In this document: positions 2-19,522 of the stretch, in pieces
Layout of the letters: each line of letters opens with the position of its first letter
How positions within the stretch are numbered: the first letter of the stretch is position 1
Source of the DNA: Candidatus Latescibacterota bacterium
GTDB taxonomy: Bacteria > Latescibacterota > UBA2968 > UBA8231
Reading direction: 5' to 3'
NCBI GenBank assembly: GCA_022827165.1
Contig: JAJDTN010000366.1
Location: forward strand, 1-36,052
DNA length: 36,052 nt
Position numbers and translations under genes: made by a program
Notes under the pieces: model-generated
The model's input: the letters and a program-made list of their open reading frames with translations, nothing else
Told to the model about the DNA's origin: nothing
The model's database searches: none

Positions 2-1687
2 TTCGGCCAGGGCTTCATCTCCGAGGCCCGCTACCTGTCGCCGATCTACGACCTCGGCTCCGTGGCGACCTGGGGCAACATCAGCTGGGTCGAACGGTTC
101 ATCGACCGTCGCCAGGAGACCGGTGCCCGCGACGAGACGAGCGACAACTGCCAGGTCTTCGAGAAGGAGTTCGCCACCGCCGAGGAAGTGCCGGAGACCT
201 GGGGTGACTGCGAGACCGCCGGCGAGAACCGGCCCGGAACCGGATACATCACGGTGTGGAACTGCGTGCAGTCGGTCTGCCGCGACGAGTTCGGCGGCCA
301 GACCGTGATTCCCGGCCGGGCCAAGAGGTTGGCCGCTCCCGCGGCTCGGCCGGCCCAGTTCGACCCGGGCGAGGACGTCTCCCAGATCCTGGTGCGCACG
401 CGCACGGGGAGCGATTCCACGCCCCTGACGTACTGGCGGCGCAACGTGGAGCGCACCAGTGATCCCGAGCGCTCCGAGTCGCTCGCCGATCCCTCGCAGC
501 TACTGGACCGTGAGGAGTACCTCGATCTGAGCCCGAACCTCGAGGCCACCCCGCCAGTCGTCTGGGACAAGGGCGAGATCACCGACGACCTGGGTCAGTG
601 GAGTCCCTGGTCGGCTCCTTACCGCAGCGGACACCTGCCCGCCGGAGAGCCCATCCTGTCGCCGGGTCCGCGGCGGTACATCCAGTTTTCCGTGGAGTTC
701 AGGAACCAGGCCATCGACGCCACGAAGGTGATCGAGCAGCTGTCGATCGAGTACCTGTCCCCGCCGATCGCGGATGACCTGATCGCCGAGATCTTTCCCC
801 GTGAGGTGGAGGCCTTCGAGGCCGTGCCCTTCACCTACGCCGTGCGCGCCCTGATGGACATCCCGGGGGTCAAGGGCTTCGACCGCCTCGAGATCTCCAC
901 GCCGACTCGGGTCCTGGGGATCGACCGCATCCAGATCCTCGACGGCACACCGGAGGAGAACGTCCTCCTGGAGGCCGAGATCAACGCCGACATCACTCCC
1001 GGCGACAGCCCGCAAGTGGTGCTCGGTGACGGCACCCGGCACCCGGTCCCCTACACGGCGGTCTCGGCGGCGGGAGACAGCTTCGGCGTCGAATCGGTGA
1101 GCGACCAGGGCTTCGCGGTCCGCTTTCCCGCCGTTGAGCGGCCCTCCACCGGCGGCCAGCGCCTCGTCAAGATCGACTTCCGCAGCCGTGTCCTGCTCTA
1201 CAGCACCGTCTTCCGCGGGGCGGCGGGGTTCGCCGCCGAGGAGGGGACGGTGCAGCGCATCACCCCGGGCAACGCCTCGTATCTCGGCGAAGGCGACCTG
1301 CCCACGGCCTCGGGGATCACGGTCTTGAGCCCTTCCATCACCCGAAGCAGCCTGGTCGGGGCGATCAGCCTGGAGCCAAACCCCTTCACGCCCAACGGCG
1401 ACGGCATCAACGACGCACTCGAGGTCGCCTACGACATCACCGCCATCACCCAGGCGGCCGAGGTGTCGATCATCCTCTTCGACCTCTCCGGCCGGCGGGT
1501 GCGTCAACTCTACCAGAGTTCCGACCTGAGCGGACACTACGACCCGGGATCTCAGCCCCTGCTCAGCTGGGACGGCCGCGACGACCACGGCAGCCCGGTG
1601 CCCCCGGGGATCTACATTCTGCGCGCCTCCGTCGAGGGAGACGCCCGCACCAGCGAGCAGGTGCGGACGGTCACTGTGGCCTACTGA
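2..1687 (+). CDS. Secreted FlgD-Ig/CHU_C-type surface protein, 5' truncated
   Basis: The reading frame is already open at base 2 and ends at TGA 1685-1687, so the N-terminus lies outside the window; the GTG at 62 is internal. The last ~95 residues form a FlgD/CHU_C-like Ig domain: NPFTPNGDGIND, then LFDLSGRRVR, then a SWDGRD..G..VPPGIY block. In the FCB group such domains end secreted or surface-anchored proteins. The middle part is beta-rich, with a GxWSPWS segment followed by SPGPRRYIQF, and it is collinear with the C-terminal half of the protein at 11321-14710, so the two are paralogues. Both end in (T/A)VAY. Four Cys residues in the first ~100 residues could form disulfides. It converges with the next gene; the stop codons interlock with a 7 bp overlap. 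The exact ligand or role is unknown. Confidence 0.85.
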   Translation, partial: FGQGFISEARYLSPIYDLGSVATWGNISWVERFIDRRQETGARDETSDNCQVFEKEFATAEEVPETWGDCETAGENRPGTGYITVWNCVQSVCRDEFGGQTVIPGRAKRLAAPAARPAQFDPGEDVSQILVRTRTGSDSTPLTYWRRNVERTSDPERSESLADPSQLLDREEYLDLSPNLEATPPVVWDKGEITDDLGQWSPWSAPYRSGHLPAGEPILSPGPRRYIQFSVEFRNQAIDATKVIEQLSIEYLSPPIADDLIAEIFPREVEAFEAVPFTYAVRALMDIPGVKGFDRLEISTPTRVLGIDRIQILDGTPEENVLLEAEINADITPGDSPQVVLGDGTRHPVPYTAVSAAGDSFGVESVSDQGFAVRFPAVERPSTGGQRLVKIDFRSRVLLYSTVFRGAAGFAAEEGTVQRITPGNASYLGEGDLPTASGITVLSPSITRSSLVGAISLEPNPFTPNGDGINDALEVAYDITAITQAAEVSIILFDLSGRRVRQLYQSSDLSGHYDPGSQPLLSWDGRDDHGSPVPPGIYILRASVEGDARTSEQVRTVTVAY

Positions 1688-4033: not shown

Positions 4034-6748
4034 TCAGGGGGTGCCCAGCCCCGCGTAGACGGTGATGAAGCCCTCGGTCACGGACCGAGTCCTTATCGAC
4101 GGATCCTCGAAGTCCCGCAGGTCGTGCTTGAGCCCTACCTGCGTGGTCAGTTGGTACCCCTGGTACTCGGAGACGTTGGTCAGCTGCCCCGCCGCGATGA
4201 AGGACTGGAAGTCGTTCACGTCGCTGTCCAAGTCGCTGAAGCGTACGTACTCGATCCCGGCGGAAATCACCGAATGGAGGAGCATGGGGAACTCGAAGAT
4301 GGTACCCACGATCTGGGTCAGCTCCCGCCGCTCGCGATTGCTGAACAGGTCATAGGTCTGGTTCCGGAACTCGCTCTTCCACCGGGGCTCGATCTGTACT
4401 CGCCCAAGCTCGAAGCGGTACTCCGCCTTGTTGATGAGGCCGACGAAGAACTCCCTCGCCCCCAGGGCCAGGGGGCCGCGCTCCTCGGCACTCAACCGCT
4501 GGTGCCACAGGTCCCACTTGAAGCTGTTCTTCACCCGCAGGCCGCCCAGGGGCGAGATGGTGTGATCCAGGGCAACCGTGTTGAAGAAGGTGTCGCGGCC
4601 AAGGAGGGGATCGAGGACCTCGACGTTGCGATCGTTGCGCAGGGTGTTGCGATTGTCCCACTGGAGGATGTTGTCCGGCAGGTCGTCCCGCATGCTCTTG
4701 ACCATCTCGAACACGCGGAGCCGCCCCCATCGGGGATGGTCGGCGTCGACACTCAGCAAGGCGTACGAAGTCTCGTTCGCGCGGTCGGAGGTGATCTCCT
4801 CCTCCTCGAGACGGCCGGCGGCGACACGCATCTGGGGGGTTAGGTACAGGCCGGCATAGGCGTTCCAGCCCCTCCGGTTCCTCTTGTAGGGCAGGTCGGG
4901 CTCGTTGTCGTTCTCGAAGCGGTCGATCCAGGTGTTGTTGTTGGCGTCGATCCCGTAGAGGAACTCCGGCCGGTCCACGTTCTGCCGCAGGAAGGGCTCC
5001 TCGTAGTCGGGGATCAGGTTGATGATGCGGCCGTTGTCGTTCTGGTTGAAGTCCGGGATGAAGTCATTATTCTCGTCCCATCCGGGGAAGACGGCGTAGT
5101 CCGTTCCCAAGGCGTCGTTCCGGCCCCAGTCGGGGGTCCGGTCCTGGTCGTCGTTGTCCTCGATGAACTCGTACATGAAACGCTCGATGCGGCCGGGCTC
5201 GCCCCGCTGGTAGTAACCCGAGGTGTAGTCGATGGTGCCGTCCTGCTGGCTGACCCAGATGCTCGTGGCGTACTCGGGTTCGATCTCGAAGGCCTCGCCG
5301 TAGGCGAAGAACGGATACTCGTGCTTGTCGGCGTGGACCATCCAGGCGCTGGCCGAAGGCCGCTGGTCGGTCCCGGAGGACGAGGAGTGGTCGGTATTGC
5401 CCTGGTCGTTGCTCGGGTAGGGATACCTCCGGTAGACGCGGCTGTTGTCCCACTCGCCGTAGACGTTCACGCCCTTGACGTCGGTGATCTCCACGGTGAA
5501 CCCGAAGATGCTCGTCGCCGTGGGGAGGCCGTACTCGAAGGTGATGATGGACAGGTTGGTGTTGTCCTTGACGTTTCCGGGGGCCTGAGTCACCAGCAGG
5601 AAGATGGGGTCGCCGGCGCTGCCCTCCTGGCGGTTGGAAGTGTACTGCACCTTGTAGTCGTTGCCGAGGACGACCTCGAACTCGACCTTGCGGATCTGCG
5701 TCTTGTCCTGGGAGGCGGTGAGCAGGAAGTCGGGGCTCTCGAAGTCGTAGCGCAGGGTGATCTGTTCCTCGCCGTCGGCCGATACGAAGCCCTCCTGGGG
5801 AAAGCCGCCCTCCACGGTCGGAGCGAAGCCGATCTCCTTGCCCCGGTCGACGGTCCCGTCGAGGTAGGTGATGATGATGTCGGAACCGGCCGGGAAGAAA
5901 GCGGCGCCGCCCTCGCCATCCCCGGGCGAGTCGTCGGTCAGGAGGATCTCGATCCAGCTTATGGGCTCGGCCTTCTGATCGACGGTCAACTCCCCGGCCA
6001 GCGGGTTGCCCTGGAAGCCGTCGATGAGGGTGTTGGACTGGTGGGCGTTGACGAAGTTGACGCCCAGGGTGGTGAAATCCCCCACCTGAACCGCGCCGCG
6101 GCCCCCCATCAGGGTCGTGTTGTTGGTGCGGTTGATGCCCTCGGCAAAGGTCGAGCTGCCGCCCGACTCGCTCACCCTGGAGTAGAGGGCGGTGGCCATG
6201 TACTTGTCGGTGGCCACGTCGAACTGGACGCCGTCGAAGTCGGGCTTGGAGAAAGTCAGGGGCGTGAGGGTAGTGCGCAGGCCGTTGGCGATGGTTATCG
6301 CGTAGTGGTGTTCGCCTTTGCTGTCGGAGGAGACGACCACATCCGAAAACCAGTTGCCGAAATTCGCGTCCTTGAACAGCTGGCTGCCCCGCTGCTCCGG
6401 CTGGCGCTGGACGTTGTTGTAGATCAGCCAGCCGCGGGTGACGTAGTTGCCGAAGAAGTCATAGAAGTAGTCCCCCTCGCGGGTGGTGCTCACGTACCGC
6501 TGGTAGGCCCGGCGGGCGTAGTTGGAGTACTCCCACTGCCGCCAGCGGTAGTCGTTGTAGAGTTCCTGGGGGACGTACCACTTGCGGAGGGCGGGATCCA
6601 GGGCGTCGAAGAGCACCCCGGGGCCGCGAGGCGAGAAGTCGACCTCGCCTCCGCGTTGGACGCCGAGCCGCGAGCCGTAGTCCTGTCCTTCGGATACGCC
6701 CGCGAGCCCGACGAAGGCGAGCAATCCCACTCCGAGTGACCTCTTCAT
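4034..6748 (-). CDS. Outer-membrane-type protein with Asp/Asn-rich repeats, unknown family
   Basis: The 904-residue product starts MKRSLGVGLLAFVGLAGVSEG, a clear signal peptide with probable cleavage before QDY. The rest is rich in aromatic and alternating polar/hydrophobic residues, especially the last 250 (FKWDLWHQRL, AEYRFELGRVQIEP), consistent with an outer-membrane beta-barrel or a large beta-sandwich. I do not recognise the family. Around residues 550-620 lie Asp/Asn-rich stretches (DENNDFIPDFNQNDNG and DANNNTWIDRFENDNEPD) resembling calcium-binding thrombospondin type 3 repeats. The ATG has GGAGG 10 nt upstream. The gene sits just behind a strong terminator and ahead of the PMT-like glycosyltransferase, so its transcription may depend on read-through from the CBM9-like gene. 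It is about three times the length of a simple porin. Confidence 0.75.
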   Translation of the reverse strand: MKRSLGVGLLAFVGLAGVSEGQDYGSRLGVQRGGEVDFSPRGPGVLFDALDPALRKWYVPQELYNDYRWRQWEYSNYARRAYQRYVSTTREGDYFYDFFGNYVTRGWLIYNNVQRQPEQRGSQLFKDANFGNWFSDVVVSSDSKGEHHYAITIANGLRTTLTPLTFSKPDFDGVQFDVATDKYMATALYSRVSESGGSSTFAEGINRTNNTTLMGGRGAVQVGDFTTLGVNFVNAHQSNTLIDGFQGNPLAGELTVDQKAEPISWIEILLTDDSPGDGEGGAAFFPAGSDIIITYLDGTVDRGKEIGFAPTVEGGFPQEGFVSADGEEQITLRYDFESPDFLLTASQDKTQIRKVEFEVVLGNDYKVQYTSNRQEGSAGDPIFLLVTQAPGNVKDNTNLSIITFEYGLPTATSIFGFTVEITDVKGVNVYGEWDNSRVYRRYPYPSNDQGNTDHSSSSGTDQRPSASAWMVHADKHEYPFFAYGEAFEIEPEYATSIWVSQQDGTIDYTSGYYQRGEPGRIERFMYEFIEDNDDQDRTPDWGRNDALGTDYAVFPGWDENNDFIPDFNQNDNGRIINLIPDYEEPFLRQNVDRPEFLYGIDANNNTWIDRFENDNEPDLPYKRNRRGWNAYAGLYLTPQMRVAAGRLEEEEITSDRANETSYALLSVDADHPRWGRLRVFEMVKSMRDDLPDNILQWDNRNTLRNDRNVEVLDPLLGRDTFFNTVALDHTISPLGGLRVKNSFKWDLWHQRLSAEERGPLALGAREFFVGLINKAEYRFELGRVQIEPRWKSEFRNQTYDLFSNRERRELTQIVGTIFEFPMLLHSVISAGIEYVRFSDLDSDVNDFQSFIAAGQLTNVSEYQGYQLTTQVGLKHDLRDFEDPSIRTRSVTEGFITVYAGLGTP

Positions 6749-6893: not shown

Positions 6894-7769
6894 CTACCTG
6901 TCGATGAACTGCGACTTGATGCGGCCCCAGGCATCCGCCGAGACGGCCGACGCTGCCTGCTGCCCCCAGTCGATGTCCTCCATCTCGCTCATGACCATGT
7001 CGTTGGTCGCCTGGCAGCACGACTCGGGAGAAACCGACCAGAAGCCCTGGTACTGCGTTCCGGGCTCGTCGAAGTCGCCGAAGGTCCAGCTGATGGCGAT
7101 GACCTGGCCTTCCTCGAGATCGGTCTCCTCCGCCGCCGACCGGTCGCCGTCCTCGGGGATGAAGTCGAGAGGCTGGATCCACAACTCGTAGTAATAGGTG
7201 CTCTCGCCGAACTCCTCACCCGTGAAGGTGTACTCCAGCTTCCAGGTGTCGTCGTTGAAGGGATCGACGCGCCACTCGAAGGCGGGCAGGTTCTGGCCCC
7301 AGTTGCCGCCCACCGGGGGCATGGCGAAGTTGAAGGACTGCTTGACCGTCAGCTCCCCGCCCCCGACGTGGTCGAAGTGGGTCGGGGTGAGGTAGATCTC
7401 CCAGGCGTCGTCGGTCCAGAACTGGGCCGGATCCTCGCGGTCCGAATTGTGGACGTTGTCGAAGACTTCGGCCATCAGGTAGAGGCGGTTGTTGTTGTCG
7501 TTCCAGCCGACGATCTGGCGGACGCTGAGGTCGGAGACATCGATCTCGCCGCGAGTCCCGCTGCCGAAGGCGGAATCGCTGTACCATTCGTTGCCGTACT
7601 CGTAGGGCACCTTGGGCACCACTTCCCATTCGGCCAGGTCGCCGTCGACGGTCGGGATGTTGGCGTCGGGGAACTGCACGGCAAAGAGGAACTCACCCGG
7701 GGGTGAGTGCGCCCAAGCCCCTGTCGTGGCCAGGGCTGCAACGGTGAGAAGGGTGAACACTCTACGCAT
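6894..7769 (-). CDS. Secreted CBM9-like (carbohydrate-binding family 9 fold) protein
   Basis: The start is ATG 7769, because MRRVFTLLTVAALATTGAWA is a clear signal peptide and GGAGAG lies 5 nt upstream; the frame stays open to 7880 but that stretch holds the promoter. The mature ~270 residues match the CBM9-like domain found in xylanases and many FCB proteins: VDGDLAEWE near the N-terminus, then LSVRQIVGWNDNNNRLYL and WTDDAWEIYLTP. CBM9 folds bind sugar reducing ends or serve as beta-sandwich modules. No catalytic domain is attached. It follows the TMTC-like gene by 107 bp but has its own promoter and terminator. In several FCB proteins a CBM9 module is joined to an outer-membrane barrel, so partnership with the following gene is plausible but inferred. 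Confidence 0.8.
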   Translation of the reverse strand: MRRVFTLLTVAALATTGAWAHSPPGEFLFAVQFPDANIPTVDGDLAEWEVVPKVPYEYGNEWYSDSAFGSGTRGEIDVSDLSVRQIVGWNDNNNRLYLMAEVFDNVHNSDREDPAQFWTDDAWEIYLTPTHFDHVGGGELTVKQSFNFAMPPVGGNWGQNLPAFEWRVDPFNDDTWKLEYTFTGEEFGESTYYYELWIQPLDFIPEDGDRSAAEETDLEEGQVIAISWTFGDFDEPGTQYQGFWSVSPESCCQATNDMVMSEMEDIDWGQQAASAVSADAWGRIKSQFIDR

Positions 7770-7824
7770 GAGGTCTCTCCAGGCTGAGTGTGTGGGATTC
7801 GGAGGTTCGGGGCGTCCGGCCGAG

Positions 7825-7838
7825 CGGGTCCGGACCCG
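7825..7838. repeat. 14 bp perfect palindrome in the leader of the CBM9-like gene
   Basis: CGGGTCCGGACCCG is a gapless perfect palindrome. It lies within the presumed 5' untranslated region, about 25 bp from the centre of the inverted repeat over the promoter. Without a loop it is more likely a protein-binding site than an RNA hairpin. Function is not known. Confidence 0.35.
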
Positions 7839-7845
7839 TTCTGAG

Positions 7846-7868
7846 CGCCAATTTATAGAGAATTGGCG
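7846..7868. promoter_or_regulatory. Inverted repeat overlapping the promoter, operator candidate
   Basis: CGCCAATT (7846-7853) and AATTGGCG (7861-7868) are perfect 8 bp arms separated by 7 bases. The repeat covers the -10 hexamer and part of the spacer of the promoter at 7852-7880, the usual position for a repressor operator. No regulator gene lies next to it. Confidence 0.5.
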
Positions 7869-7880
7869 GGGACCGGTCAA
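7852..7880 (-). promoter_or_regulatory. Sigma70-type promoter for the CBM9-like gene
   Basis: On the minus strand TTGACC (7880-7875) and TATAAA (7857-7852) are separated by exactly 17 bp, each matching 5 of 6 consensus bases. The predicted start near 7845 gives a leader of about 75 nt before ATG 7769. The -35 box contains the TGA stop of the upstream TMTC-like gene. Confidence 0.65.
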
Positions 7881-9525: not shown

Positions 9526-9529
9526 GGAG
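9526..9529 (+). promoter_or_regulatory. Shine-Dalgarno site that selects the third start of the parvulin gene
   Basis: GGAG at 9526-9529 is 8 nt before ATG 9538. It overlaps the GTG at 9529 and is too close to the ATG at 9532, so of three clustered in-frame starts only 9538 is well placed. Confidence 0.5.
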
Positions 9530-9537
9530 TGATGATC

Positions 9538-11232
9538 ATGCAAAGAGCCGGCAGAGCCGGTGCGGGGCTGCTGACCCTCCTTTTCGGGCTGACGGGCAGC
9601 GGCTGCGGCGAGAGCGGTCCGGCCGTCGTCGCCCGGGTGGCGGAGCGGCCCATCGACGAAGAAGCCCTGCGGCGGTTCGTCATGACCCTGCCTCCGGGGC
9701 TTCGGACCTCGAAGCAGGGACAGGAGGCCCGCCGGGACTACCTGCAGACGCTGATCGACCGCGAGCTCATGCTGCTCGAGGCGGAGGCGCGAAGGCTGGA
9801 CGAGGATCCGCAGCTGCAGCGCCGATTGCGGCGCAAGGTGGAGGACCGGATCCTCGCCCTCTACCGCCGGCGCGAGTTCCCGCCTGCGGAGGTGACCTCC
9901 GACGAGGTCGAGGCCCGCATGCGTGAGATGGGGCTGGACCGGGAGCGCCTGGCGGAGGCGATCCTCGTCCCCTCGGAGGAGGAAGCGCTGCGCATCCGCG
10001 CCGCCCTCTCCGGCGGGCAGCGGTTCGAGGACCTGGGCGCCCCTGGCTCCGGCTCGCAGGGAGACGTTGTGGGCTACCTCAACCGCCTCACGGCGCCGCG
10101 GGCGGGCATCCCGGCGGCGGTCTTCGACACGCTGGCCACCGGGGAGGTCTCCCGGCCCCTGCCGCTGGAGGGCCGCTGGCGCCTGGTCCGCTTCGTCGAC
10201 GACCGCACCTCCACCGAGCCCTCCCTGCGGGACCGCGTGCGGCAGCGGCTTATGCGGGAGGCCCGCCAGGAGATGGAGGACCAGAAGGTCGAGGTGCTGG
10301 CCCGCGAGTTGAACTGGGCCCCGGATGCCGGCGGTATGGCGTTGCTGGCGGGGCTCGACACCGGCAACCGCCGGATCCCGGAGCTGACCCACTCCGAGGC
10401 CCGGGCGCCGCTGTTCACCTTCGAGGGCGGGGTCCGTACGGTGGAGGACTACCTCGATGCGATTCGCGAGCACAAGGTGCGCACCCCCCGGGCCCTGACG
10501 GACAGCGGCTTTGCCGCGGCCCTCGGGCAGCGCCTCCTCCAGGGCCGCGCCCTGTTGCTCATCGACGCCGAACGCCTTGATCTCGGCGAGGAGCCGGAGA
10601 TCGTCCAGTGGCGGGACCAGGTGCAGCGCGAACAGCTGCTGCAGGCCCTGCGCTCGCAGATTGTCGACGGCGCCGACTCCATGGCCACCGGTGAGCGGGT
10701 GCGGACCTACTACGACGAGCACCGGGAGAGCTTCCGCCTGCCCGAGGAGGTCTGTTTCGACGAGATCCTGTTCCCGAGCCGCGAGGAGGCCGAGGAGGTT
10801 CTCGGCCAGATCGACGACGACGTCCAACTGCTCGATCTCTCCCGACTCAGGGGCAACAAGATCCGGAAGCGCCGGGCCGACGGCCTGCTCTGCGCCAACA
10901 GCATGTCCCGGCAGGTGCTTCCCGGGCTCTGGTCCGCCCTGGAGGATGCGCCTGTCGGCGTGGTGACGGGACCGGTATCGCTGCTGCAGGGCAGGGCCTG
11001 GGTGTTGATCAAGGTCGTCCGCAGGGAGCCGGAGAGGTTCCAGAGCTTCGACGAGGCCCGGCCGCGGGCCCGGGCCTCGCTTCTGGCCGGCCTCCAGCGG
11101 CAGCTTTTCGAGGACTGGCTGGCGACCGAGAGAGGGCGCCGGCAGGGGGAGATCGAGGTCTTCGATGACCGTCTCGGGGCCGCCCTCCCGGAGGCCCTGC
11201 TGGCGAACCTCGTCCCTGAGGACGAAGCGTGA
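9538..11232 (+). CDS. Parvulin-type peptidyl-prolyl isomerase, two domains, probable lipoprotein
   Basis: The 564-residue product begins with a short basic region, a hydrophobic stretch and SGSGC-like GSGCGES, suggesting a lipoprotein, though the lipobox is imperfect (Gly at -3). A SurA/PrsA-like N-terminal chaperone region follows (VARVAERPIDEEALRRFV; DYLQTLIDRELMLLEAEARR). A parvulin domain lies at about residues 125-220 (AILVPSEEEALRIRAALSGG, then GDVVGYL and VFDTLATGEVSRPL), and a second, more diverged copy at about 390-520 (CFDEILFPSREEAEEVLG; VVTGPVSLLQGRAWVLIKV). Parvulins assist folding of exported proteins at prolyl bonds. It is first in an operon whose next product is a large secreted protein, its likely client. 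Compared with SurA the second domain lacks clear active-site conservation, so chaperoning may dominate. Confidence 0.85.
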   Translation: MQRAGRAGAGLLTLLFGLTGSGCGESGPAVVARVAERPIDEEALRRFVMTLPPGLRTSKQGQEARRDYLQTLIDRELMLLEAEARRLDEDPQLQRRLRRKVEDRILALYRRREFPPAEVTSDEVEARMREMGLDRERLAEAILVPSEEEALRIRAALSGGQRFEDLGAPGSGSQGDVVGYLNRLTAPRAGIPAAVFDTLATGEVSRPLPLEGRWRLVRFVDDRTSTEPSLRDRVRQRLMREARQEMEDQKVEVLARELNWAPDAGGMALLAGLDTGNRRIPELTHSEARAPLFTFEGGVRTVEDYLDAIREHKVRTPRALTDSGFAAALGQRLLQGRALLLIDAERLDLGEEPEIVQWRDQVQREQLLQALRSQIVDGADSMATGERVRTYYDEHRESFRLPEEVCFDEILFPSREEAEEVLGQIDDDVQLLDLSRLRGNKIRKRRADGLLCANSMSRQVLPGLWSALEDAPVGVVTGPVSLLQGRAWVLIKVVRREPERFQSFDEARPRARASLLAGLQRQLFEDWLATERGRRQGEIEVFDDRLGAALPEALLANLVPEDEA

Positions 11233-11320: not shown

Positions 11321-14300
11321 ATGAGACGTCGAGCCTTTGGATGGGGGGGCTGGTGGGGGGTCATCGCCATGGGAGCCGGCCTCGGGTCTGCCACCGGGGC
11401 GGGAGCCGCCGACGGGTTCCGGATCAGCGGGGACCGCATCATCATCGACCGGTCCGAGGACTGGGGCGCCTGGCGCCGGCCGAGCCACGCGACCGAGATC
11501 GACCCGGAGGGCGGATTCGTTCGCCCCTTGCTGGTTCGCAAGCGGATCGACGCCATCCCCGGCATGGACCAGTTCACGAGCCTCATCGGCGACCAGAGGG
11601 CCCTCGACAAGCTGGCCAAGGACGTCAACCGGGAGGGAGGGGCCATGCCTCTGAACATCCGCTCCCAGGCGGCCTCGGTGGCCGGCGTCCCCATCGTGCA
11701 CCTCAAGGACAACGAGAAGAAGGGCATCAAGGCCGGAGACCCGATCGAGTGGTTCTATTACTACGGCGGCATCCGCTACACGCCGCGCAATGCCGAGTCG
11801 GCCACCAACATCCTCGACGGCGATCCCTCCACCTACTGGGAGCCGACGACCCTGATCTCCGAAGGGGAGTGGCTGGACCTGCCCCAGTCCAAGCGCGGCC
11901 CCAAGATCTTCCTCGCTCCGGATGAGGGAGGGGAGCTGACGCGGGTCGACTCGCTGGCCTGGGCCGCGGCGTCCGCCGGACGTCGGCAGGTGGAGTTTCA
12001 CAGCCACGACCTGGACGAGTGGTACGTCGACATCGAGCTCGGCAGGGTCCTGCCGGTGCGGTTCATCGTGCTGCGCTTCGCCGACCCCGAGGTGGGCGAG
12101 CCCTTCCGCCAGTTCCGCATCCTCGGCACGCCCTCGCACCGGCGCGACGCCTCCCTTGGGCTGATCGCCCGCACCAACACCCCGAACGAGGACCACCAGG
12201 TCGTCACCTTCGAGGTCGGCTCGGGTCCGGCGATCCCGGAGGTGGGCTCCGACGCCGTGGTCGATTTCGATTCCCCGGGCGGCTACCTGCAGCTCTCCCG
12301 CCTGCGCATCGCCGTCACCGACAGCCGCTTCGACCGCTTCCGCCGGCTGGCCTCGGAGGAGGAGTACCTGTCCCTGCCCCTGGAGGACCGCGGCAGCATC
12401 GAGTACCACATCCTGAACACCGCCGGGACCGAGACCCGGGTGGCCAGGGAGGTCTACGACAAGGTCGACGACGAACGCAAGGGCTCTCTCTTCTACTACC
12501 AGCGCGAACGCCCGCGGCTGGCCGATATCGAGGTCTGGACGCAGGGGGACAACATCTCCCTCGGCGTGATCGACGGCGGCGGCAGCGTCGCCCTGACGGG
12601 GAGCCGCGTCGCCGCCCCGGGTTTCGACGGTCTCCACGAGACCCAATACCTGCAGCTCGTGTGGTCCTCGGATCCCCGCTACCACGACCGGGGCATCCTG
12701 AACCTCGACCTGGGGGCCCGCTTCTGGCTCGACTTCTTCCGCATGGTTGGCTGGTTCAACGGCGTCGACGAGGTCGTCACCTGGATCTCCGACGGCAGCC
12801 GCGACCCGAACGGCAACCTGCGCTTCACCGAGATCGACCGCGATCCGAGCGGGCAGGGGCGCAACGACCTCCAGATCTCCCTGTCGGAGCCGGCGCCGGT
12901 GCGCTACATACGCACCCAGATCTTCTCCGACGCACCGGGCCGGGCAGGCGGATACAACACCGGCGACCGCATCCGGGAGTTCCAGATCTACGGCGAGGGC
13001 TATCCCTCCCAGGTAACCCTAACCTCTCCGATCATCGAGCTGCCGAGCGCGACCTTTCTCGGCGCCATCTCCTGGGAGGCGGAGGTGCCGGACCCGGAAT
13101 TGGTCGACGCGGAGATCCGCACCCGCACCGGCGACCGCCTGGTGGACGTGACCGAGTACTACGGCAGCGGCGGCGAGCCCAAGACCGAGGACGAGTACAA
13201 CAAGCTTCCCACCAGCTTCAAGGGTCCCATCGTGCCCCGGCGGGTCCCCGGGGGCGGCTGGAGCTCCTGGAGCCAGCGCTACCTGACCCCCGGCCAGCGC
13301 GTGACCTCGCCGAGCCCGAGAAGGTACCTGCAGATCCAGGCGCGGCTGCTGTCGCAGACGCCGGATCTCGCCGCCACCCTGCGCTCCATCGAGGTGGAGC
13401 TGCTGCCGCCGGCGGCCGCCAGCTCCCTGGCCGAGGTGTGGCCCTCGGAGGCGACGCCGGGCCACATGGAGGTCTTCGAACTCTTCGTGCGGCCCACCTT
13501 CATCGAGGAGGATCCGGACGGCGAGCCGAGCAGCCGTTTCGACGAGGTCCTGGTCGACGCCGACCCGATCCAGGAGTTCGAACTGCTCCACATCACCATC
13601 GGCGCCGACGGAGACATGGAGGACGGCGGCACGGCCCAGCAGTTCTCGGAGCCGGCGTCGCGGACCGATCCGGACACCGGGGCTCCGACGAACTGGTTCG
13701 AGGGCGACGCCGGCCCCTTCCTGGCCCTCCTCGACCCCTCCTCGGGCGACACCCTCAAGGTGCTGCAGGGAGGCCTGCCGGGGATCCCCGCGCCGGATCC
13801 GGAGGAGGCTTCCCGGGTGCTGCTGAGACTGCCGCGGAGGGTGGCCTCCCTGCCCGTGGGCGACGGCGATCGGCTCTTCTACCGGAAGATCCTCGAGGTC
13901 GACGAAGAGGTGCCGGTGGACGAGGACGGCCGCATCCTGAAGGAGCTGACCTACCTGGGCCTGCCCATCGAGCAGCGGGGGAAGATCCTGTACTTCCAGA
14001 TCACCGGGCACACCGACGAGGGCGACCCCCTCCAGGAAGCAGTGGAAGAGTTCGACTACCGGGCCCTGCCGGACTCCACCAAGGGAGAGGTACGCTACTT
14101 CCGCAAGCTCGTCGGCTCCGGGGGGGAGTTCCCCTACGACCGCGAGGGGGTGCGCCTCACCGAAGCCGCGTACAACCAGTTGCCGCAGGCCGAGCGAGGG
14201 CGCGTGCAGGCCGCTGGCGAGCTGGTCCGCATCGCTTTCCGCGCCAAGGTGCTGCTCAACGGAACAACCCTCGACGTGGCCATCCGCGACTCCGATGGGG

Positions 14301-14710
14301 GCAGCGGCTGGCAGAGGGTCGACCCGGGGAACGCAACCCTCCTGCAGCCGGGAGACGGCCTCAGCATCGCCGTTCCCATCAGCCCGCAGGTGGTGCGCGG
14401 CATCGAGGTCGAGCCGAGGACGTTCACCCCCAACGGCGACGGCATCAACGACCTCACCGAGGTCCGGTTCTCGGTGGGCAACGTCAACGTGGCGCGCCCC
14501 GTGGAGGTGCGGATCCACGACCTCAGCGGGCGCCTGGTGTGGCGGGAGAAGCGCCTCACCTTCGGCGACCAGCGCTTCCAGTGGGACGGCTCCGACGGCT
14601 CCGGCAACCGCGTCGCTCCGGGCCTGTACCTGTGCCGCGTGGTGGTCGACGTCGACGCCGCCGGCGCCTCGAGAAAGGCTGACCAACGGCTCATCGCCGT
14701 CGCCTACTGA
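11321..14710 (+). CDS. Large secreted discoidin-like/FlgD-Ig surface protein with YxxLPxxx(K/R)G insertions
   Basis: From ATG 11321 the product is 1129 residues. MRRRAFGWGGWWGVIAMGAG through AGAA is a signal peptide. Near residue 165 the segment NILDGDPSTYWEP is typical of discoidin/F5-F8-type-C-like domains, and LADIEVWTQGDN and IREFQIYGEGY resemble strand ends of such domains. A GGWSSWSQRYLTPGQ block is shared with the paralogue at the window start. The C-terminus is a FlgD/CHU_C Ig domain (RTFTPNGDGIND, HDLSGRLVW, WDGSDGSGNRVAPGLY). Seven copies of a motif of form (E/D)xYxxLPxxx(K/R)Gx(I/V) occur near residues 183, 348, 377, 625, 875, 910 and 948. It follows the parvulin gene by 88 bp. It probably acts on the cell surface in adhesion or structure; no catalytic motif was seen. 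Confidence 0.85.
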   Translation: MRRRAFGWGGWWGVIAMGAGLGSATGAGAADGFRISGDRIIIDRSEDWGAWRRPSHATEIDPEGGFVRPLLVRKRIDAIPGMDQFTSLIGDQRALDKLAKDVNREGGAMPLNIRSQAASVAGVPIVHLKDNEKKGIKAGDPIEWFYYYGGIRYTPRNAESATNILDGDPSTYWEPTTLISEGEWLDLPQSKRGPKIFLAPDEGGELTRVDSLAWAAASAGRRQVEFHSHDLDEWYVDIELGRVLPVRFIVLRFADPEVGEPFRQFRILGTPSHRRDASLGLIARTNTPNEDHQVVTFEVGSGPAIPEVGSDAVVDFDSPGGYLQLSRLRIAVTDSRFDRFRRLASEEEYLSLPLEDRGSIEYHILNTAGTETRVAREVYDKVDDERKGSLFYYQRERPRLADIEVWTQGDNISLGVIDGGGSVALTGSRVAAPGFDGLHETQYLQLVWSSDPRYHDRGILNLDLGARFWLDFFRMVGWFNGVDEVVTWISDGSRDPNGNLRFTEIDRDPSGQGRNDLQISLSEPAPVRYIRTQIFSDAPGRAGGYNTGDRIREFQIYGEGYPSQVTLTSPIIELPSATFLGAISWEAEVPDPELVDAEIRTRTGDRLVDVTEYYGSGGEPKTEDEYNKLPTSFKGPIVPRRVPGGGWSSWSQRYLTPGQRVTSPSPRRYLQIQARLLSQTPDLAATLRSIEVELLPPAAASSLAEVWPSEATPGHMEVFELFVRPTFIEEDPDGEPSSRFDEVLVDADPIQEFELLHITIGADGDMEDGGTAQQFSEPASRTDPDTGAPTNWFEGDAGPFLALLDPSSGDTLKVLQGGLPGIPAPDPEEASRVLLRLPRRVASLPVGDGDRLFYRKILEVDEEVPVDEDGRILKELTYLGLPIEQRGKILYFQITGHTDEGDPLQEAVEEFDYRALPDSTKGEVRYFRKLVGSGGEFPYDREGVRLTEAAYNQLPQAERGRVQAAGELVRIAFRAKVLLNGTTLDVAIRDSDGGSGWQRVDPGNATLLQPGDGLSIAVPISPQVVRGIEVEPRTFTPNGDGINDLTEVRFSVGNVNVARPVEVRIHDLSGRLVWREKRLTFGDQRFQWDGSDGSGNRVAPGLYLCRVVVDVDAAGASRKADQRLIAVAY
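13877..14221 (+). repeat. 115-residue tandem insertion of three ~35-residue modules
   Basis: Three consecutive units are encoded here, each a short Tyr/Phe-rich strand (LFYRK, ILYFQ, VRYFR), a Gly/acidic turn, then a helix-like (E/T)xxxYxxLPxxx(K/R)G segment at 13943-13981, 14048-14086 and 14162-14200. Flanking residues DRL and LVRIAFRAKVLL align with QRLVKIDFRSRVLL of the paralogue at 2-1687, which has no insertion at this point. Single or paired copies recur at 11867-11899, 12362-12394, 12449-12484 and 13193-13225. The repeat is visible at protein level, not as near-identical DNA. Confidence 0.7.
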
Positions 14711-16281
14711 TACCCCGGCTCTCCCGGGCCAACCTGCTGGCCCTGCTGGGGGGCTTCGGCGTCATCGGGCTGGCGGAACTCGGCCTCCGGGCGGTCGGTT
14801 ACGGCCCGCCGAACCGCCTCTTCCTGCTCGACGAGACCACGGGATCCTACAAGGCCAACCCCGAGGTCACGCACCGCTTCTTCCCGCCCCATCTGCGCCG
14901 CCGGCCGGTGGCCCTCGACTTCTTCGCCGGCAAGCCGCCGGACACGGTGCGCATCTTCGCCCTCGGCGGCTCAACCCTCGTGGGGTTCCCCAACGCCCCC
15001 GGCCTCGACTTCCCGCGCTTCCTGCAACTCATGCTCGGCGATGCCTTTCCGGACCGGGGGTTCGAGGTCGTCAACTGCGGGATCACCGCGGTCAACAGCC
15101 ACTGCGTCCTCGACTTCGCGCGCGAGGTCCTCGACTACGATCCCGACCTGCTCGTCGTCTACATGGGCCACAACGAGTTCGTCGGACCCTACGGCCCGAC
15201 GACGCCCTTCGTCCGTCTGGGCCAGGAGCGATCGCTGATCCGGGCACACATGCGACTGCAGGGGTTCAGGCTCCTCCACGGCGCCAAGGAGGTGTTCTTC
15301 AGTCTGTCCTCGCTGGCCGGTAGGGAGCCGCCCCGCTTCGGCCTCCACTTGGTGACCGACCAGATCGACTGGACCGACGACAGCTACGGGAGCACCGTGG
15401 ACAACTACCGCGCCAACCTCGACGACCTGGCGGAGGCAGCCGCCGACAGGGGCGTCCCGGTCCTGCTGGGGACCCTGGCGTCCAACCTCGCCGGAATCTA
15501 TCCCCTGCGGTCGGACTGCGGCGGCGAGCTCGGCGGCCCGGAGCTGGCGGCCGAGGCGGACGACCTCCTCCGTCAGGGCCGGCCGGAGCGGGTGCGGACC
15601 CTGGCCAGGGAAGCGCTGAGGAGGTCTCCCTACTGCGCCGCCGCCCACTTCGAGCTGGCCCGGCTGCTGAGGATGGAGGGGAGAGACCGCGAGGCCCTGG
15701 CCTCCTACGCACTCGCCCGCGACCAGGACCGGGTGCCCTTCCGCGCGCCGTCGGTCTTCAACGAGGTCGTGCGCGAGACCGGCCGCCGCCACGCCAACGT
15801 GATCGTCGCCGACGTGGAGGCCGCCTTCGCCGCCGCCTCTCCAGGCCGCATCGTCGGGGACGAGCTGATGACCGACTACCTGCACCCCACCGCCTACGGC
15901 CACTACCTGCTGGCCCGGACCCTGGTCGAGCAGATGGCCGCCCGCGGTCCGGCTTCCGCCTGGGGGCCGCCGCGGCCGGCGGCCGGGTTCGAGTCCTGCC
16001 GGGACCGCCTCGGGTACACCCGGCTCGCCGACGCCCTCGCCCGCAACGACCTGATCTACTTCCTGCGCAACATGCCCTACCTCTCGCCGCCGCCGCTGCT
16101 GCGCGAACGCGTGGCCGGACTGATCCAGGAGCAGCTGGCCCTGTTCACGCGCCTGACCCCCGCCGACCGGGAGCGCTTCCGCCGCGCCGGGGGGCTCGCC
16201 TTCCTGCGCAAGGCCGTCTCCTACGTCCCGCCGCGGCGCCTCCCCGGGCTCGACGCCGCCCTGCGGCGCCTGGGTGCCTGA
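14707..16281 (+). CDS. SGNH/GDSL-type hydrolase with central TPR-like region, non-canonical start
   Basis: SGNH blocks are clear: GGSTLVGFP (Ser89), a Gly in VVNCGITAVNS, GHNE (Asn156) and DYLH (Asp390, His393), the catalytic set of GDSL esterases/acetylhydrolases. A TPR-like helical segment (LLRQGRPERVRTLAREALRR and following) is inserted before the last block. The N-terminus has a membrane anchor (LLALLGGFGVIGLAELGLRA) and a typical TNP/FFPP-like stretch (YKANPEVTHRFFPP) needed for the family. The first ordinary start, GTG 14908, would remove these 67 residues, and the frame upstream is open back to 14683 with no ATG, GTG or TTG. I therefore place the start at CTG 14707, overlapping the previous stop; ATA 14710 is also possible. 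Numbering assumes CTG. It probably edits acyl groups on an envelope substrate. Confidence 0.8.
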   Translation: MIPRLSRANLLALLGGFGVIGLAELGLRAVGYGPPNRLFLLDETTGSYKANPEVTHRFFPPHLRRRPVALDFFAGKPPDTVRIFALGGSTLVGFPNAPGLDFPRFLQLMLGDAFPDRGFEVVNCGITAVNSHCVLDFAREVLDYDPDLLVVYMGHNEFVGPYGPTTPFVRLGQERSLIRAHMRLQGFRLLHGAKEVFFSLSSLAGREPPRFGLHLVTDQIDWTDDSYGSTVDNYRANLDDLAEAAADRGVPVLLGTLASNLAGIYPLRSDCGGELGGPELAAEADDLLRQGRPERVRTLAREALRRSPYCAAAHFELARLLRMEGRDREALASYALARDQDRVPFRAPSVFNEVVRETGRRHANVIVADVEAAFAAASPGRIVGDELMTDYLHPTAYGHYLLARTLVEQMAARGPASAWGPPRPAAGFESCRDRLGYTRLADALARNDLIYFLRNMPYLSPPPLLRERVAGLIQEQLALFTRLTPADRERFRRAGGLAFLRKAVSYVPPRRLPGLDAALRRLGA

Positions 16282-19200
16282 GGTGGCGCTCTACGTCCTC
16301 TTCCTGCTGTCCGGCGTGACCGGGCTGATCCACGAGGTCGCCTGGACGCGGGCCTTCGCCTTCATCTTCGGCAACACGACCTACGCGGTCAGCGCCGTCC
16401 TCGCCGCGTTCATGGCCGGGTTGGCTCTGGGCAGCTGGTTCTTCGGCCGCCGGGTCGACCGGCGGCCCGGAGACGAGCTCGGGCTCTACGCCGTCCTGGA
16501 GCTGGGAATCGCCCTCTCGGCGGTGGCCGTCATCCCGGTCCTGGACCGGCTGGACGAGGTGTACGGCGTCCTCTTCCGGGCCGCCCCGCACAGCCTCTGG
16601 CTGCTGACGGTCTGCCGCGGCCTGCTGGCCTTCCTCCTGCTGCTGGTTCCCAGCTTCCTCATGGGCGGCACGCTGCCGGTGCTCAGCCGCCACGTGATCC
16701 GGGAGACTCGCGACCTGGCAGGCGGCGTGGGGGCGCTCTACGGACTGAACACGGCGGGCGCGGCGGCCGGCTGTCTGATCACCGGGTTCTTCCTGGTGGA
16801 GCATCTCGGCGTGCGCGGCAGCATCGCCGCGGGGGCCGCCCTCAACCTGCTGCTGGCGGCCGCCTTCCTGGCCCTGCGCGCGGCCCACCGGAGGCACGGT
16901 ACCAGGGCGCCGGGGCCAGGGGCGGCTTCCCCGGCGGAATCGCCGCCCGCCGGACTCCTGCTCCTCGGGATCGCGGCGGCCTCCGGGTTCGCCGCCCTCG
17001 GCTACGAGGTCCTGTGGACGCGGCTGCTGGTCTTCAAGCTCAAGACCACGACCTACGCCTTCTCCGTGATGCTGACCACCTTCCTCAGCGGCCTCGGATT
17101 CGGAGGGCTGCTGCTGGGCGCCTGGGAGCGGCGCGCCCGCGAGCGAGGGCCCGCCTCCGCCTGGCGCCGGCTGAGCGGACTGCAGGCCGGGATCGGCCTC
17201 TCGGCCCTGCTGTCGATCTTCGTCATCGGCGGTCTCGAGGGGGTCTCCGTGGCCCAGGACGGTTCATGGGGAGCCCGCACCCTTCGCCAGCTCGGGCTGT
17301 CGGCGGCCGTCATGCTGCCGCCGACGCTGATGATGGGCATGTCCCTGCCCCTGGTGGCGCGCCTGGCGGGCGCCGGGCGAGGTGTGGGCGAGGCCGTGGG
17401 GCGCGCCTATGCCGCCAACACGGCGGGGGCCGTCCTCGGCTCGCTGGTCGCCGGCTTCTGCCTGGCGCCCCTGCTCGGGACCCAGCACAGCCTGATCCTG
17501 CTCGCCCTGGTCAATCTGGCGCTGGCGGCGGCCGTCCTCGGGGCGGCGCCTGCCGGTGTCCGGAGCGGCGCCAAAGGCTGGCCCCGGACCCTCGCCGGCG
17601 CCTGGGCCGCCGCGGGTCTGGGCCTGCTGGCGCTGCCGTCGGACCTGCTCTTCGGACTCTACAACGCGGGCGAGCGAGAGGTGGACAGCCGCACGCGCAT
17701 CCTGCACGCCCGGGAGGGCGCCGGGGGGATCACCACGGTGCACGAGCTGCCCAGCGGCGACCGCGTGATCTCCACCGGCTCGATCAACGTGGCGGGCACG
17801 ACCCTGACCCTGCGTACCACGCAGATGCTGCAGGCCCACATCCCGGCGCTGCTGCACCCCGGGCCCCGGCAGGTGCTGCAGATCGGCTTCGGGTCGGGCG
17901 AGACGGCCCACATCCTCACCGGCTACCCGGGCTGCTCCCTCGACGTGGCCGAGATCAGCCGGTCGGTGCTCGACGAGGCCGACGCCTTCTTCGGCGACAT
18001 CAACCACGGCGTCCTGCACCGTCCTTCGGTGACCCCCTTCGTCACCGACGGCGCCGGCTTCCTGCGCCTCACCCGCCGGAGCTATGACCTCATCCTGAAC
18101 GACTCGATCTGGCCGTACTACGCCGGCAACTCCGGCCTCTACACGCGGGAGCACTTCGCCGCCGGACGGGACCGCCTGCGGCCCGGCGGCCTGATGACGA
18201 GCTGGCTGCCGCTTGACATGCGGCTGGAGAGCTTCCTCACCATCCTGCGCACCTTCCACTCCGTCTTCCCCCACTTCACGATCTGGGCAGCAAACACCCA
18301 CTACACCAAGCACGCCCTTCTCGTCGGCTCGACCGAACCGCTGCGCATCGACGCGGCGGACTTCCTGGACCGCTTCGCCGATCGGGCCGCCGCCGGACTC
18401 GCCCCGGTGCACCTCGGCGACCCCGTGCTCCTGCTCGACTGCTTCCTCACCGACGAGACCGCCCTGGCCGGCGAGCTGGCCGGGGTGCCACTGCACACCG
18501 TGGACAGGCCGGTGCTCGAGTTCGCCCCGTCCAAGCCGAGCCTGCACGGCCAGCTGGCGGTCTACGAGCTGCTGGCGCGTCATCGCCGGCCGGTGACGGG
18601 CCATCTGGCGGGGGTCGACCCGGTGCGGGACCGAGGGTTCCTCGAAGCGCTCGAGCGCACGCGCGCGGCGAGCGCCCTGGTGATGGAGGCGACCCTGCGG
18701 CGGGAGCGGCGGCAACCGGGATGGCAGGCCCACCTCGAGAGCGCCCGGGACCTGCGGCCGGACCACCCCGGGCTCCGGATCCTTCTGGAGCGCACCGGCC
18801 GCCTGGCCCAGGTCGAGGAGACGGCCCTGGAAGGGCGCACCTACCGCGAGCTGGTGGGGCTCGCGGACCGCCAGGCCAAGGCCGGCCTCCACGCCAGGGC
18901 CGCCCGGGTGCTCCGCCGCGCCATCCTGCAGCAGCCCGACCGACCGAGGGCCCACCAGGATCTGGGCTTGGTACTGGCCGCCGCGGGTGATCTGGCCGGA
19001 GCCGCCGCGGCCCTTGAGCGCGCCCTCGAGCTGGCTCCCGGCTCGGCCGGAGCCCACCTGGGCCTGGGCAACATCCGGCGCCGGCAGGGGGACCCGGTGG
19101 CCGCCGACGCCCAGTATCGGCGGGCCCTCGACGCCGATCCCGGCCTGGCGGAGGCGCACTACAGCCTGGGCACCCTGCTTGCCGGGCAGGACCGGAGGTC

Positions 19201-19522
19201 CGAGGCCCTGGCGGCGCTGCAGGAGGCCCTCAGGCTGAGACCCGACTACGTCCGGGCCCACATCGCCGCCGGCGTGCTCCTCGACGCCGAGGGCCGACTG
19301 GAGGACGCCGTCCACCACTTTCTCGAGGCGGTCCGTCTGGCTCCGCGGAACCGGGCGGCCTGCAACAACCTGGTCGTGGCCCTGGCCGCGGGGGAGCGCC
19401 GGGCGGAAGCGGCGGAGCACCTGGCGGCGGCCCGGGCGCGGGGGGTTGACATGAGTCTGGCGGCGCAGGTGCTCGGCGCCCTGCAGAGTCCGGCGCCGGA
19501 TTCCCAGCCCGACCAGCCCTGA
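16274..19522 (+). CDS. Membrane protein fused to spermidine-synthase-like and TPR domains
   Basis: The 1082-residue product has three parts. Residues 1-~470 hold around twelve to fourteen hydrophobic helices in two similar halves: LSGVTGLIHEVAWTRAF and, near 240, a repeat with GFAALGYEVLWTRLL; each half has MGG/MGM-type SFLMGGTLPVLSR and LMMGMSLPLVAR. This is the fused MFS-like/spermidine-synthase architecture. Residues ~480-760 form a Rossmann methyltransferase-type domain with VLQIGFGSGETAHIL and AEISRSVLDEA; the aminopropyltransferase D-S-x-D-P signature is replaced by NDSIWPYYAGNSGLY, so polyamine synthesis is unlikely. About 200 C-terminal residues are TPRs. GTG 16274 overlaps the SGNH stop by 8 bp (GTG 16283 is an alternative). 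The substrate is unknown; translational coupling ties it to the surface-protein operon. Confidence 0.8.
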   Translation: MPEVALYVLFLLSGVTGLIHEVAWTRAFAFIFGNTTYAVSAVLAAFMAGLALGSWFFGRRVDRRPGDELGLYAVLELGIALSAVAVIPVLDRLDEVYGVLFRAAPHSLWLLTVCRGLLAFLLLLVPSFLMGGTLPVLSRHVIRETRDLAGGVGALYGLNTAGAAAGCLITGFFLVEHLGVRGSIAAGAALNLLLAAAFLALRAAHRRHGTRAPGPGAASPAESPPAGLLLLGIAAASGFAALGYEVLWTRLLVFKLKTTTYAFSVMLTTFLSGLGFGGLLLGAWERRARERGPASAWRRLSGLQAGIGLSALLSIFVIGGLEGVSVAQDGSWGARTLRQLGLSAAVMLPPTLMMGMSLPLVARLAGAGRGVGEAVGRAYAANTAGAVLGSLVAGFCLAPLLGTQHSLILLALVNLALAAAVLGAAPAGVRSGAKGWPRTLAGAWAAAGLGLLALPSDLLFGLYNAGEREVDSRTRILHAREGAGGITTVHELPSGDRVISTGSINVAGTTLTLRTTQMLQAHIPALLHPGPRQVLQIGFGSGETAHILTGYPGCSLDVAEISRSVLDEADAFFGDINHGVLHRPSVTPFVTDGAGFLRLTRRSYDLILNDSIWPYYAGNSGLYTREHFAAGRDRLRPGGLMTSWLPLDMRLESFLTILRTFHSVFPHFTIWAANTHYTKHALLVGSTEPLRIDAADFLDRFADRAAAGLAPVHLGDPVLLLDCFLTDETALAGELAGVPLHTVDRPVLEFAPSKPSLHGQLAVYELLARHRRPVTGHLAGVDPVRDRGFLEALERTRAASALVMEATLRRERRQPGWQAHLESARDLRPDHPGLRILLERTGRLAQVEETALEGRTYRELVGLADRQAKAGLHARAARVLRRAILQQPDRPRAHQDLGLVLAAAGDLAGAAAALERALELAPGSAGAHLGLGNIRRRQGDPVAADAQYRRALDADPGLAEAHYSLGTLLAGQDRRSEALAALQEALRLRPDYVRAHIAAGVLLDAEGRLEDAVHHFLEAVRLAPRNRAACNNLVVALAAGERRAEAAEHLAAARARGVDMSLAAQVLGALQSPAPDSQPDQP

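What the first reader, a model, noticed from the sequence alone, without database searches (positions are those of the whole stretch)
11321..14710. Recurring ~35-residue YxxLPxxx(K/R)G module inserted in a surface protein
Seen: seven copies of (E/D)xYxxLPxxx(K/R)Gx(I/V), three of them in tandem at 13877-14221. At that point the paralogue (2-1687) reads straight through from QRL to VKIDFRSRVLL with no insertion of the 115 residues. Each unit is an aromatic strand, a Gly/acidic turn and an acidic helix-like LPxxxRG segment. Inferred: an insertable, possibly mobile or expanding, surface module that may bind a ligand or act as a spacer. I know of no named domain with this signature.
Basis: partly seen in the sequence, partly recalled or inferred. 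Interest (0 to 1): 0.75.

Follow-up and report, generated by a model that had tools for sequence, protein, structure and literature searches.

The report
Insert module in bacterial surface proteins
A small, old protein building block, for which no known relative was found, sits in four loops of a family of probably secreted proteins with a sugar-binding-type fold in little-known bacteria; it may be a docking arm that helps these proteins assemble on the cell surface.

The parts
11321..14710 (+). P0001: 1129-aa protein with the module arrays (LONG type)
   Evidence: 246 homologues at E<=1e-3, 120 listed
11543..12547 (+). CBM32 / F5-8C discoidin-fold domain (residues 75-409), host of slots A and B
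11852..11932 (+). slot A, copy U1 (WLDLPQSKRG)
   Evidence: 9.1 bits with an HMM built without U1 copies; helix and strand in the model
11933..12004 (+). slot A, cryptic copy U1b
   Evidence: same predicted elements; relatives
12347..12436 (+). slot B, copy U2 (YLSLPLEDRG)
   Evidence: 21.3 bits, (in the training set)
12437..12505 (+). slot B, copy U3 (YDKVDDERKG, decayed motif)
   Evidence: 15.0 bits, (in the training set)
13166..13258 (+). slot C, copy U4 (YNKLPTSFKG), in a beta-rich RTRTG...WSxWS domain
   Evidence: 29.6 bits, (in the training set); empty forms of the slot
13868..13987 (+). slot D, copy U5 (long form, YLGLPIEQRG)
13988..14089 (+). slot D, copy U6 (YRALPDSTKG)
14090..14209 (+). 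slot D, copy U7 (long form, YNQLPQAERG)
14417..14641 (+). CHU_C / FlgD_ig C-terminal domain (type IX secretion signal type)
   Evidence: PF13585 31.3 bits, cut-off 27
2..1687 (+). P0002: paralogue (SHORT type), N-terminus cut by the window; no slot-D array; weak slot-C match near 497-541
4034..6748 (-). B904: uncharacterised ~900-aa protein, recurrent neighbour of LONG
   Evidence: 0 Pfam families for this protein; 5 families in one member each of 21 relatives, E>=0.038; neighbourhoods; multicopy
6894..7880 (-). CBM9-like protein, recurrent member of the clusters
   Evidence: PF06452 25 bits, cut-off 23.4
9529..11232 (+). PPIC-type peptidyl-prolyl isomerase next to LONG
   Evidence: PF13145 66.6 bits, cut-off 27

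Best explanation
The motif marks a ~25-38-residue beta-beta-alpha module (strand, turn, short strand, YxxLP helix, xxx[KR]G turn, next strand). One to three copies in series fill loop slots of beta-rich domains in a paralogous protein family. Shown by sequence and model: the module, its slots, its age and its gene neighbourhood. Inferred: the proteins are exported by the type IX system through their CHU_C tails and held at the outer membrane with the co-encoded B904 protein; the arrays are semi-rigid arms that extend the host sheets and dock LONG, SHORT and B904 proteins into one surface assembly that presents the CBM32-fold (and CBM9-like) domains.
For: Module. Same module in slot C of SHORT proteins: an HMM from slot-D copies only scores 10 bits or more in 7 of 44 SHORT ORFs (best 35.8), in 0 of 880 shuffles and 0 of 871 other ORFs. 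Slots A and B fall within a CBM32 fold. Type IX: CHU_C over cut-off in both window paralogues; SprA_N over cut-off in 6 of 6 related genomes (5 with the unit; none of 14 control genomes rang). Partnership: all 29 genomes with the unit are among the 39 of 64 with B904; in two genomes whose hits all lie on one contig, 20 of 28 and 15 of 20 unit-bearing ORF clusters lie within 10 kb of a B904 match, against 3.06 and 2.05 for circular shifts. Constraint: slots B, C and D are about as conserved as their hosts (within the 49 slot-A-bearing rows: B 0.58 against 0.62, C 0.62 against 0.67, D 0.59 against 0.51). Parallel in print: type B CTD proteins bind PorP-like barrels (PMC9143113; passages seen).
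Against: No contact between module and partner was tested. B904 has no fold model here and no known-family match; that it is a membrane protein is a guess. B904 occurs without a unit hit in 10 of 64 genomes, so B904 does not need the unit. In G051 8 of 28 and in G052 5 of 20 unit ORF clusters lie over 10 kb from B904. 37 of 44 SHORT ORFs score under 10 bits with the slot-D HMM, and the 27-column HMM reaches 10 bits in only 2 of 44. Slot A is clearly less conserved than its host (0.45 against 0.62). In the window LONG is 4.4 kb from B904 and on the other strand. NCBIfam's type B sorting model stays under its cut-off in both window paralogues.
Confidence: 0.38

Rival explanations
1. The arrays widen the carbohydrate-binding face of the CBM32 and neighbouring domains: they are ligand-specificity loops rather than protein-protein docking arms.
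For: Slots A and B fall within a CBM32-fold domain; CBM9-like proteins recur in the clusters; slot A varies more than its host, as specificity loops may; some clusters lie beside MR_MLE enolase-family, GFO_IDH_MocA and xylose-isomerase-like genes (10 hand-picked neighbours from 4 loci, 3 without any family).
Against: Slots C and D sit in domains that match no Pfam family or PDB sequence beyond chance; the module's conserved positions are mainly core-like Tyr, Leu and Gly. The slots were not located on the domain surface, so this rival is barely tested.
Confidence: 0.27
2. The arrays are structural only: stiffening or spacing inserts.
For: The array finds no globular counterpart in PDB; its length is nearly constant in slot D (108-124 residues) and slot A (48-49), as for a ruler; slot A is less conserved than its host.
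Against: Slots B, C and D are about as conserved as their hosts; slots A and B lie within a domain rather than between domains; slots A and D are empty in relatives with intact frames.
Confidence: 0.22
3. A mobile or still-expanding repeat element.
For: The same module occurs in four slots and in two paralogue types; slot C ranges from 8 to 103 residues.
Against: 0 tandem repeats by TRF; units of P0001 share 7-41% of residues in register; slot A needs 1 and slot D 2 changes on the tree; a search with the trio alone found 17 proteins of 480 candidates, all in the family.
Confidence: 0.04
4. The motif is a piece of a phage-tail-type domain (PF24243) acquired from phages.
For: PF24243 hits 1 of 44 units (E 0.0012); of 9 proteins scanned P0040 reaches 24.1 bits against cut-off 23.7 and P0039 23.2; one of three sub-cut-off genome hits (G045:C355) coincides with a unit copy.
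Against: The match in P0039 and P0040 covers only 10 of 26 model positions; 0 of 4 genomes over cut-off; no viral fold match at E<=0.001 for the array.
Confidence: 0.04

Closest known systems
CBM32 / F5-8 type C (discoidin) domain, PF00754 and PF22633
   Different: Its span holds the module arrays of slots A and B; P0001 itself scores below the PF00754 cut-off (14.1 against 28.2).
Type IX-secreted type B CTD (CHU_C) proteins with cognate PorP/SprF-like partners
   Same: CHU_C tail, SprA_N in related genomes, recurrent neighbour gene coding a conserved protein.
   Different: B904 is ~900 aa, matches no Pfam family beyond chance and is not shown to be a barrel; PF11751 rang in 0 of 6 genomes but also in no control genome.
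SusC/SusD systems of Bacteroidota
   Same: Works-like idea only: dozens of paralogous clusters per genome, some beside catabolic genes.
   Different: SusD-like_3 in 0 of 6 genomes while the Bacteroides control rang; no Plug match in 21 B904 proteins.
Phage_tail_C, PF24243
   Same: Ten-residue stretch around the Tyr helix of the last slot-D copy.
   Different: The rest of the module does not match; no genome hit over cut-off.

Membership tests
CBM32 / F5-8C discoidin fold | Jelly-roll fold over the domain | tested here: met
CBM32 / F5-8C discoidin fold | Pfam PF00754 score over cut-off in P0001 | tested here: not met
   14.1 bits against 28.2; met in P0060, P0098 and P0111 of 9 relatives scanned
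CBM32 / F5-8C discoidin fold | Carbohydrate binding | not testable with these tools
   needs a binding assay
Type IX secretion cargo (type B-like CTD) | CHU_C C-terminal domain | tested here: met
   PF13585 31.3 and 29.1 bits, cut-off 27
Type IX secretion cargo (type B-like CTD) | NCBIfam type B sorting model TIGR04131 over cut-off | tested here: not met
   18.7 and 20.7 bits, cut-off 35
Type IX secretion cargo (type B-like CTD) | Translocon SprA in the genome | tested here: met
   PF14349 over cut-off in 6 of 6 related genomes; the window's own genome is not held
Type IX secretion cargo (type B-like CTD) | Cognate PorP/SprF-like partner | tested here: inconclusive
   PF11751 in 0 of 6 genomes, no control rang
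Phage_tail_C PF24243 | Match over the whole 26-position model, over cut-off | tested here: not met
   10 positions only; one of 9 proteins just over cut-off; 0 of 4 genomes
SusC/SusD-like uptake | SusD-like protein | tested here: not met
   PF14322 in 0 of 6 genomes, control rang
Any solved fold for the module array | Structural match of the array alone in PDB | tested here: inconclusive

The most novel reading that the evidence does not exclude
The module is a new protein fold unit that builds a phylum-specific surface machine: LONG, SHORT and B904 proteins, with about 39-47 B904 copies in each of two genomes, form an outer-membrane capture or uptake system that stands in for SusCD in Ca. Latescibacterota, with the module arrays as its assembly code.
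Probability: 0.22. Interest if true: 0.82.

Novelty: new variant of a known kind. Interest (0 to 1): 0.55.

Why it matters
It gives an uncharacterised, heavily duplicated gene family of a little-cultured phylum a testable architecture: a CBM32-fold protein with insert arms, a recurrent partner of unknown fold, and a likely secretion route. If the arms are docking elements, the pattern of slots should predict which paralogues pair.

Tried and rejected
Mobile element: no DNA tandem repeats (the direct repeats are short two- or three-copy matches), one or two changes of state on the tree. Phage origin: a ten-residue Pfam match; PHROGs hit single units at E>=0.17 only; no viral fold match at E<=0.001 for the array. 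The full-length Foldseek searches gave matches of low TM-score that say little about the module; one weak PDB hit for the array (sensor histidine kinase 4onx, E 0.02), not pursued. I suspected a cohesin-like host for slot D and an Fn3-like host for slot C; sequence searches supported neither, so I call both unassigned beta-rich hosts. Likeness of the unit to a phage-tail repeat of the kind LTxxxYxxL...TLYxI is recalled and was tested only through PF24243. Antisense ORF 13022-14686 scores 9.8 bits with the unit HMM: taken as chance. Papers: passages of PMC4454575 and one reference-list passage of PMC7081726 seen, nothing on this family there. Paper searches listed only 20, 10 and 10 papers of 398,178, 75 and 3,466; two found none; by titles and abstract starts none was on this family (open-licence PMC only).

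Rows dropped and limits: A1 used 101 of the 121 proteins in hand (P0001, P0003-P0122). The tree started from 194 sequences, 137 after a redundancy filter, 136 without truncated P0053. My length rule labels P0104 and P0112 SHORT although they group with LONG. The tree is the quick method, warns of meeting long branches, and the branch that makes slot D two changes instead of one has support 56. Unit searches scored at most 131 or 150 first-look candidates per genome and B904 about 14, so those counts are lower bounds. Shift maxima reach the observed values because shifts near zero were allowed. A recheck showed that slot A is less conserved than its host; I lowered docking from 0.40 to 0.38 and raised spacer from 0.20 to 0.22 for that.

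Full report
What is there. The ORF 11321-14710 encodes a 1129-aa protein with a CHU_C/FlgD_ig tail over the Pfam cut-off and a weak, sub-cut-off F5/8C match. Six strict copies of [YFW]xxLPxxx[KR]G are present, against 0.008 per shuffle. A decayed seventh copy scores 15.0 bits with a 27-column unit HMM built from copies 2-7 of the family; copy 1, left out of the training set, scores 9.1 bits. The predicted structure adds an eighth copy after copy 1.

Four slots. Across 137 sequences, slot A holds 48-49 residues in 30 LONG rows of one clade and 0-9 in the other LONG rows (0-28 in SHORT rows, where the alignment is loose). Slot B holds 48-65 residues in LONG rows. Slot C holds 39-51 residues in LONG rows (one 103) and 8-10, 39-67 or 80-100 in SHORT rows. 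Slot D holds 108-124 residues in 81 LONG rows and 2-12 in the other rows. Slot C has clean empty forms such as RTRSGTSPDPGDTLAWSGWS. The hosts of slots C and D match no Pfam family and no PDB sequence beyond chance. An HMM trained only on slot-D copies finds the long form of the module in slot C of 7 of 44 SHORT ORFs at 10 bits or more (best 35.8), in 0 of 880 shuffles and 0 of 871 other ORFs; the 27-column HMM reaches 10 bits in 2 of 44. This is the best evidence for one module in several hosts.

Age. On a 136-row tree of host columns the slot-A array needs one change (SH-aLRT 99) and the slot-D array two. Rooted between SHORT and LONG (support 99; the root is my choice), the first LONG branches lack slot D, so the paralogue most likely never had the trio; the deep branches have support 46-80. 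No tandem repeat is left in the DNA, and copies within P0001 share 7-41% of residues in register. Within the 49 rows that have slot A, mean pairwise identity is 0.58 in slot B, 0.62 in C and 0.59 in D against 0.62, 0.67 and 0.51 in their hosts, but only 0.45 in slot A against 0.62 in its host. So slots B, C and D are under constraint like their hosts, slot A less so.

Distribution. There are 246 homologues at E<=1e-3 (7995 candidates scored, 120 listed); the four listed rows with an organism name are Candidatus Latescibacteria or Latescibacterota. A search with the trio alone found 17 proteins of 480 candidates, all in the family. In the phylum of G001 (the genome of an 88%-identical relative whose record is titled Gemmatimonadaceae) 29 of 64 genomes carry the unit at E<=0.001, with up to 66 hits each, a lower bound. 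I inspected 38 unit-bearing ORF entries (L047 repeats part of L028): 36 score 126 bits or more with a LONG host HMM, and the other two, L061 and L062, score 210 and 222 bits with the SHORT profile. Unit hits outside the fetched loci were not inspected.

Neighbourhood. In 33 stretches (window included) the recurring set is PPIase, LONG, B904, a TPR protein, SHORT proteins and a CBM9 protein, not all in every stretch. B904 lies in the same stretch for 27 of 29 LONG ORFs (the stretches were chosen for LONG or its relatives). Without such choice, in G051 and G052, whose hits all lie on one contig, 20 of 28 and 15 of 20 unit ORF clusters lie within 10 kb of B904 against 3.06 and 2.05 by shifts. B904 has 51 and 41 match rows there, about 47 and 39 ORFs after merging rows of one frame. 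It occurs in 39 of 64 genomes, among them all 29 with the unit. It matches no Pfam family beyond chance and no PDB sequence. SprA_N is in 6 of 6 genomes tested, SusD-like_3 in 0 of 6 with a ringing control, Plug in 6 of 6.

Reading. CHU_C tails and SprA make type IX export likely. In Bacteroidota, type B CTD proteins appear to be held by cognate PorP-like barrels (PMC9143113, passages). B904 may play that part here; this is analogy. The arrays extend host loops, are mostly conserved, and occur, as far as inspected, in proteins encoded near B904 and SHORT genes. I therefore favour docking arms (0.38) over ligand loops (0.27) and spacers (0.22), without a direct test of any of them.

Noticed in passing
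window 4034-6748 (-): B904, a ~900-aa family without Pfam match, in about 39-47 copies in each of two ~6-Mb genomes; a conserved Asp/Asn-rich stretch (VDDNDDQDR..DENNDF..DMNNN) looks calcium-binding-like.
   Followed up: partly
G002, G007-G014, G016: Ten genomes carry B904 relatives but no unit hit at E<=0.001; in G007-G010 the B904 matches are much weaker.
   Followed up: no
L081, L083, L069, L065: Clusters lie beside MR_MLE enolase-family, GFO_IDH_MocA, Ldh_2, PhyH and xylose-isomerase-like genes, hinting at a link with small-molecule or sugar-acid use.
   Followed up: partly
L001: Record titled Gemmatimonadaceae (JAPOZM010000007.1), while the named homologues are Latescibacteria; the label may be out of date.
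   Followed up: no
window 16274-19522 (+): 1082-aa protein with spermine-synthase and TPR matches next to a GDSL-TPR protein; both are also beside LONG in G001.
   Followed up: no
L031:8804-12046, L026:1319-4126, L031:6169-8766: Slot C of some paralogues holds 92-103 residues without a clear unit score; a different or decayed insert may use the same slot.
   Followed up: no
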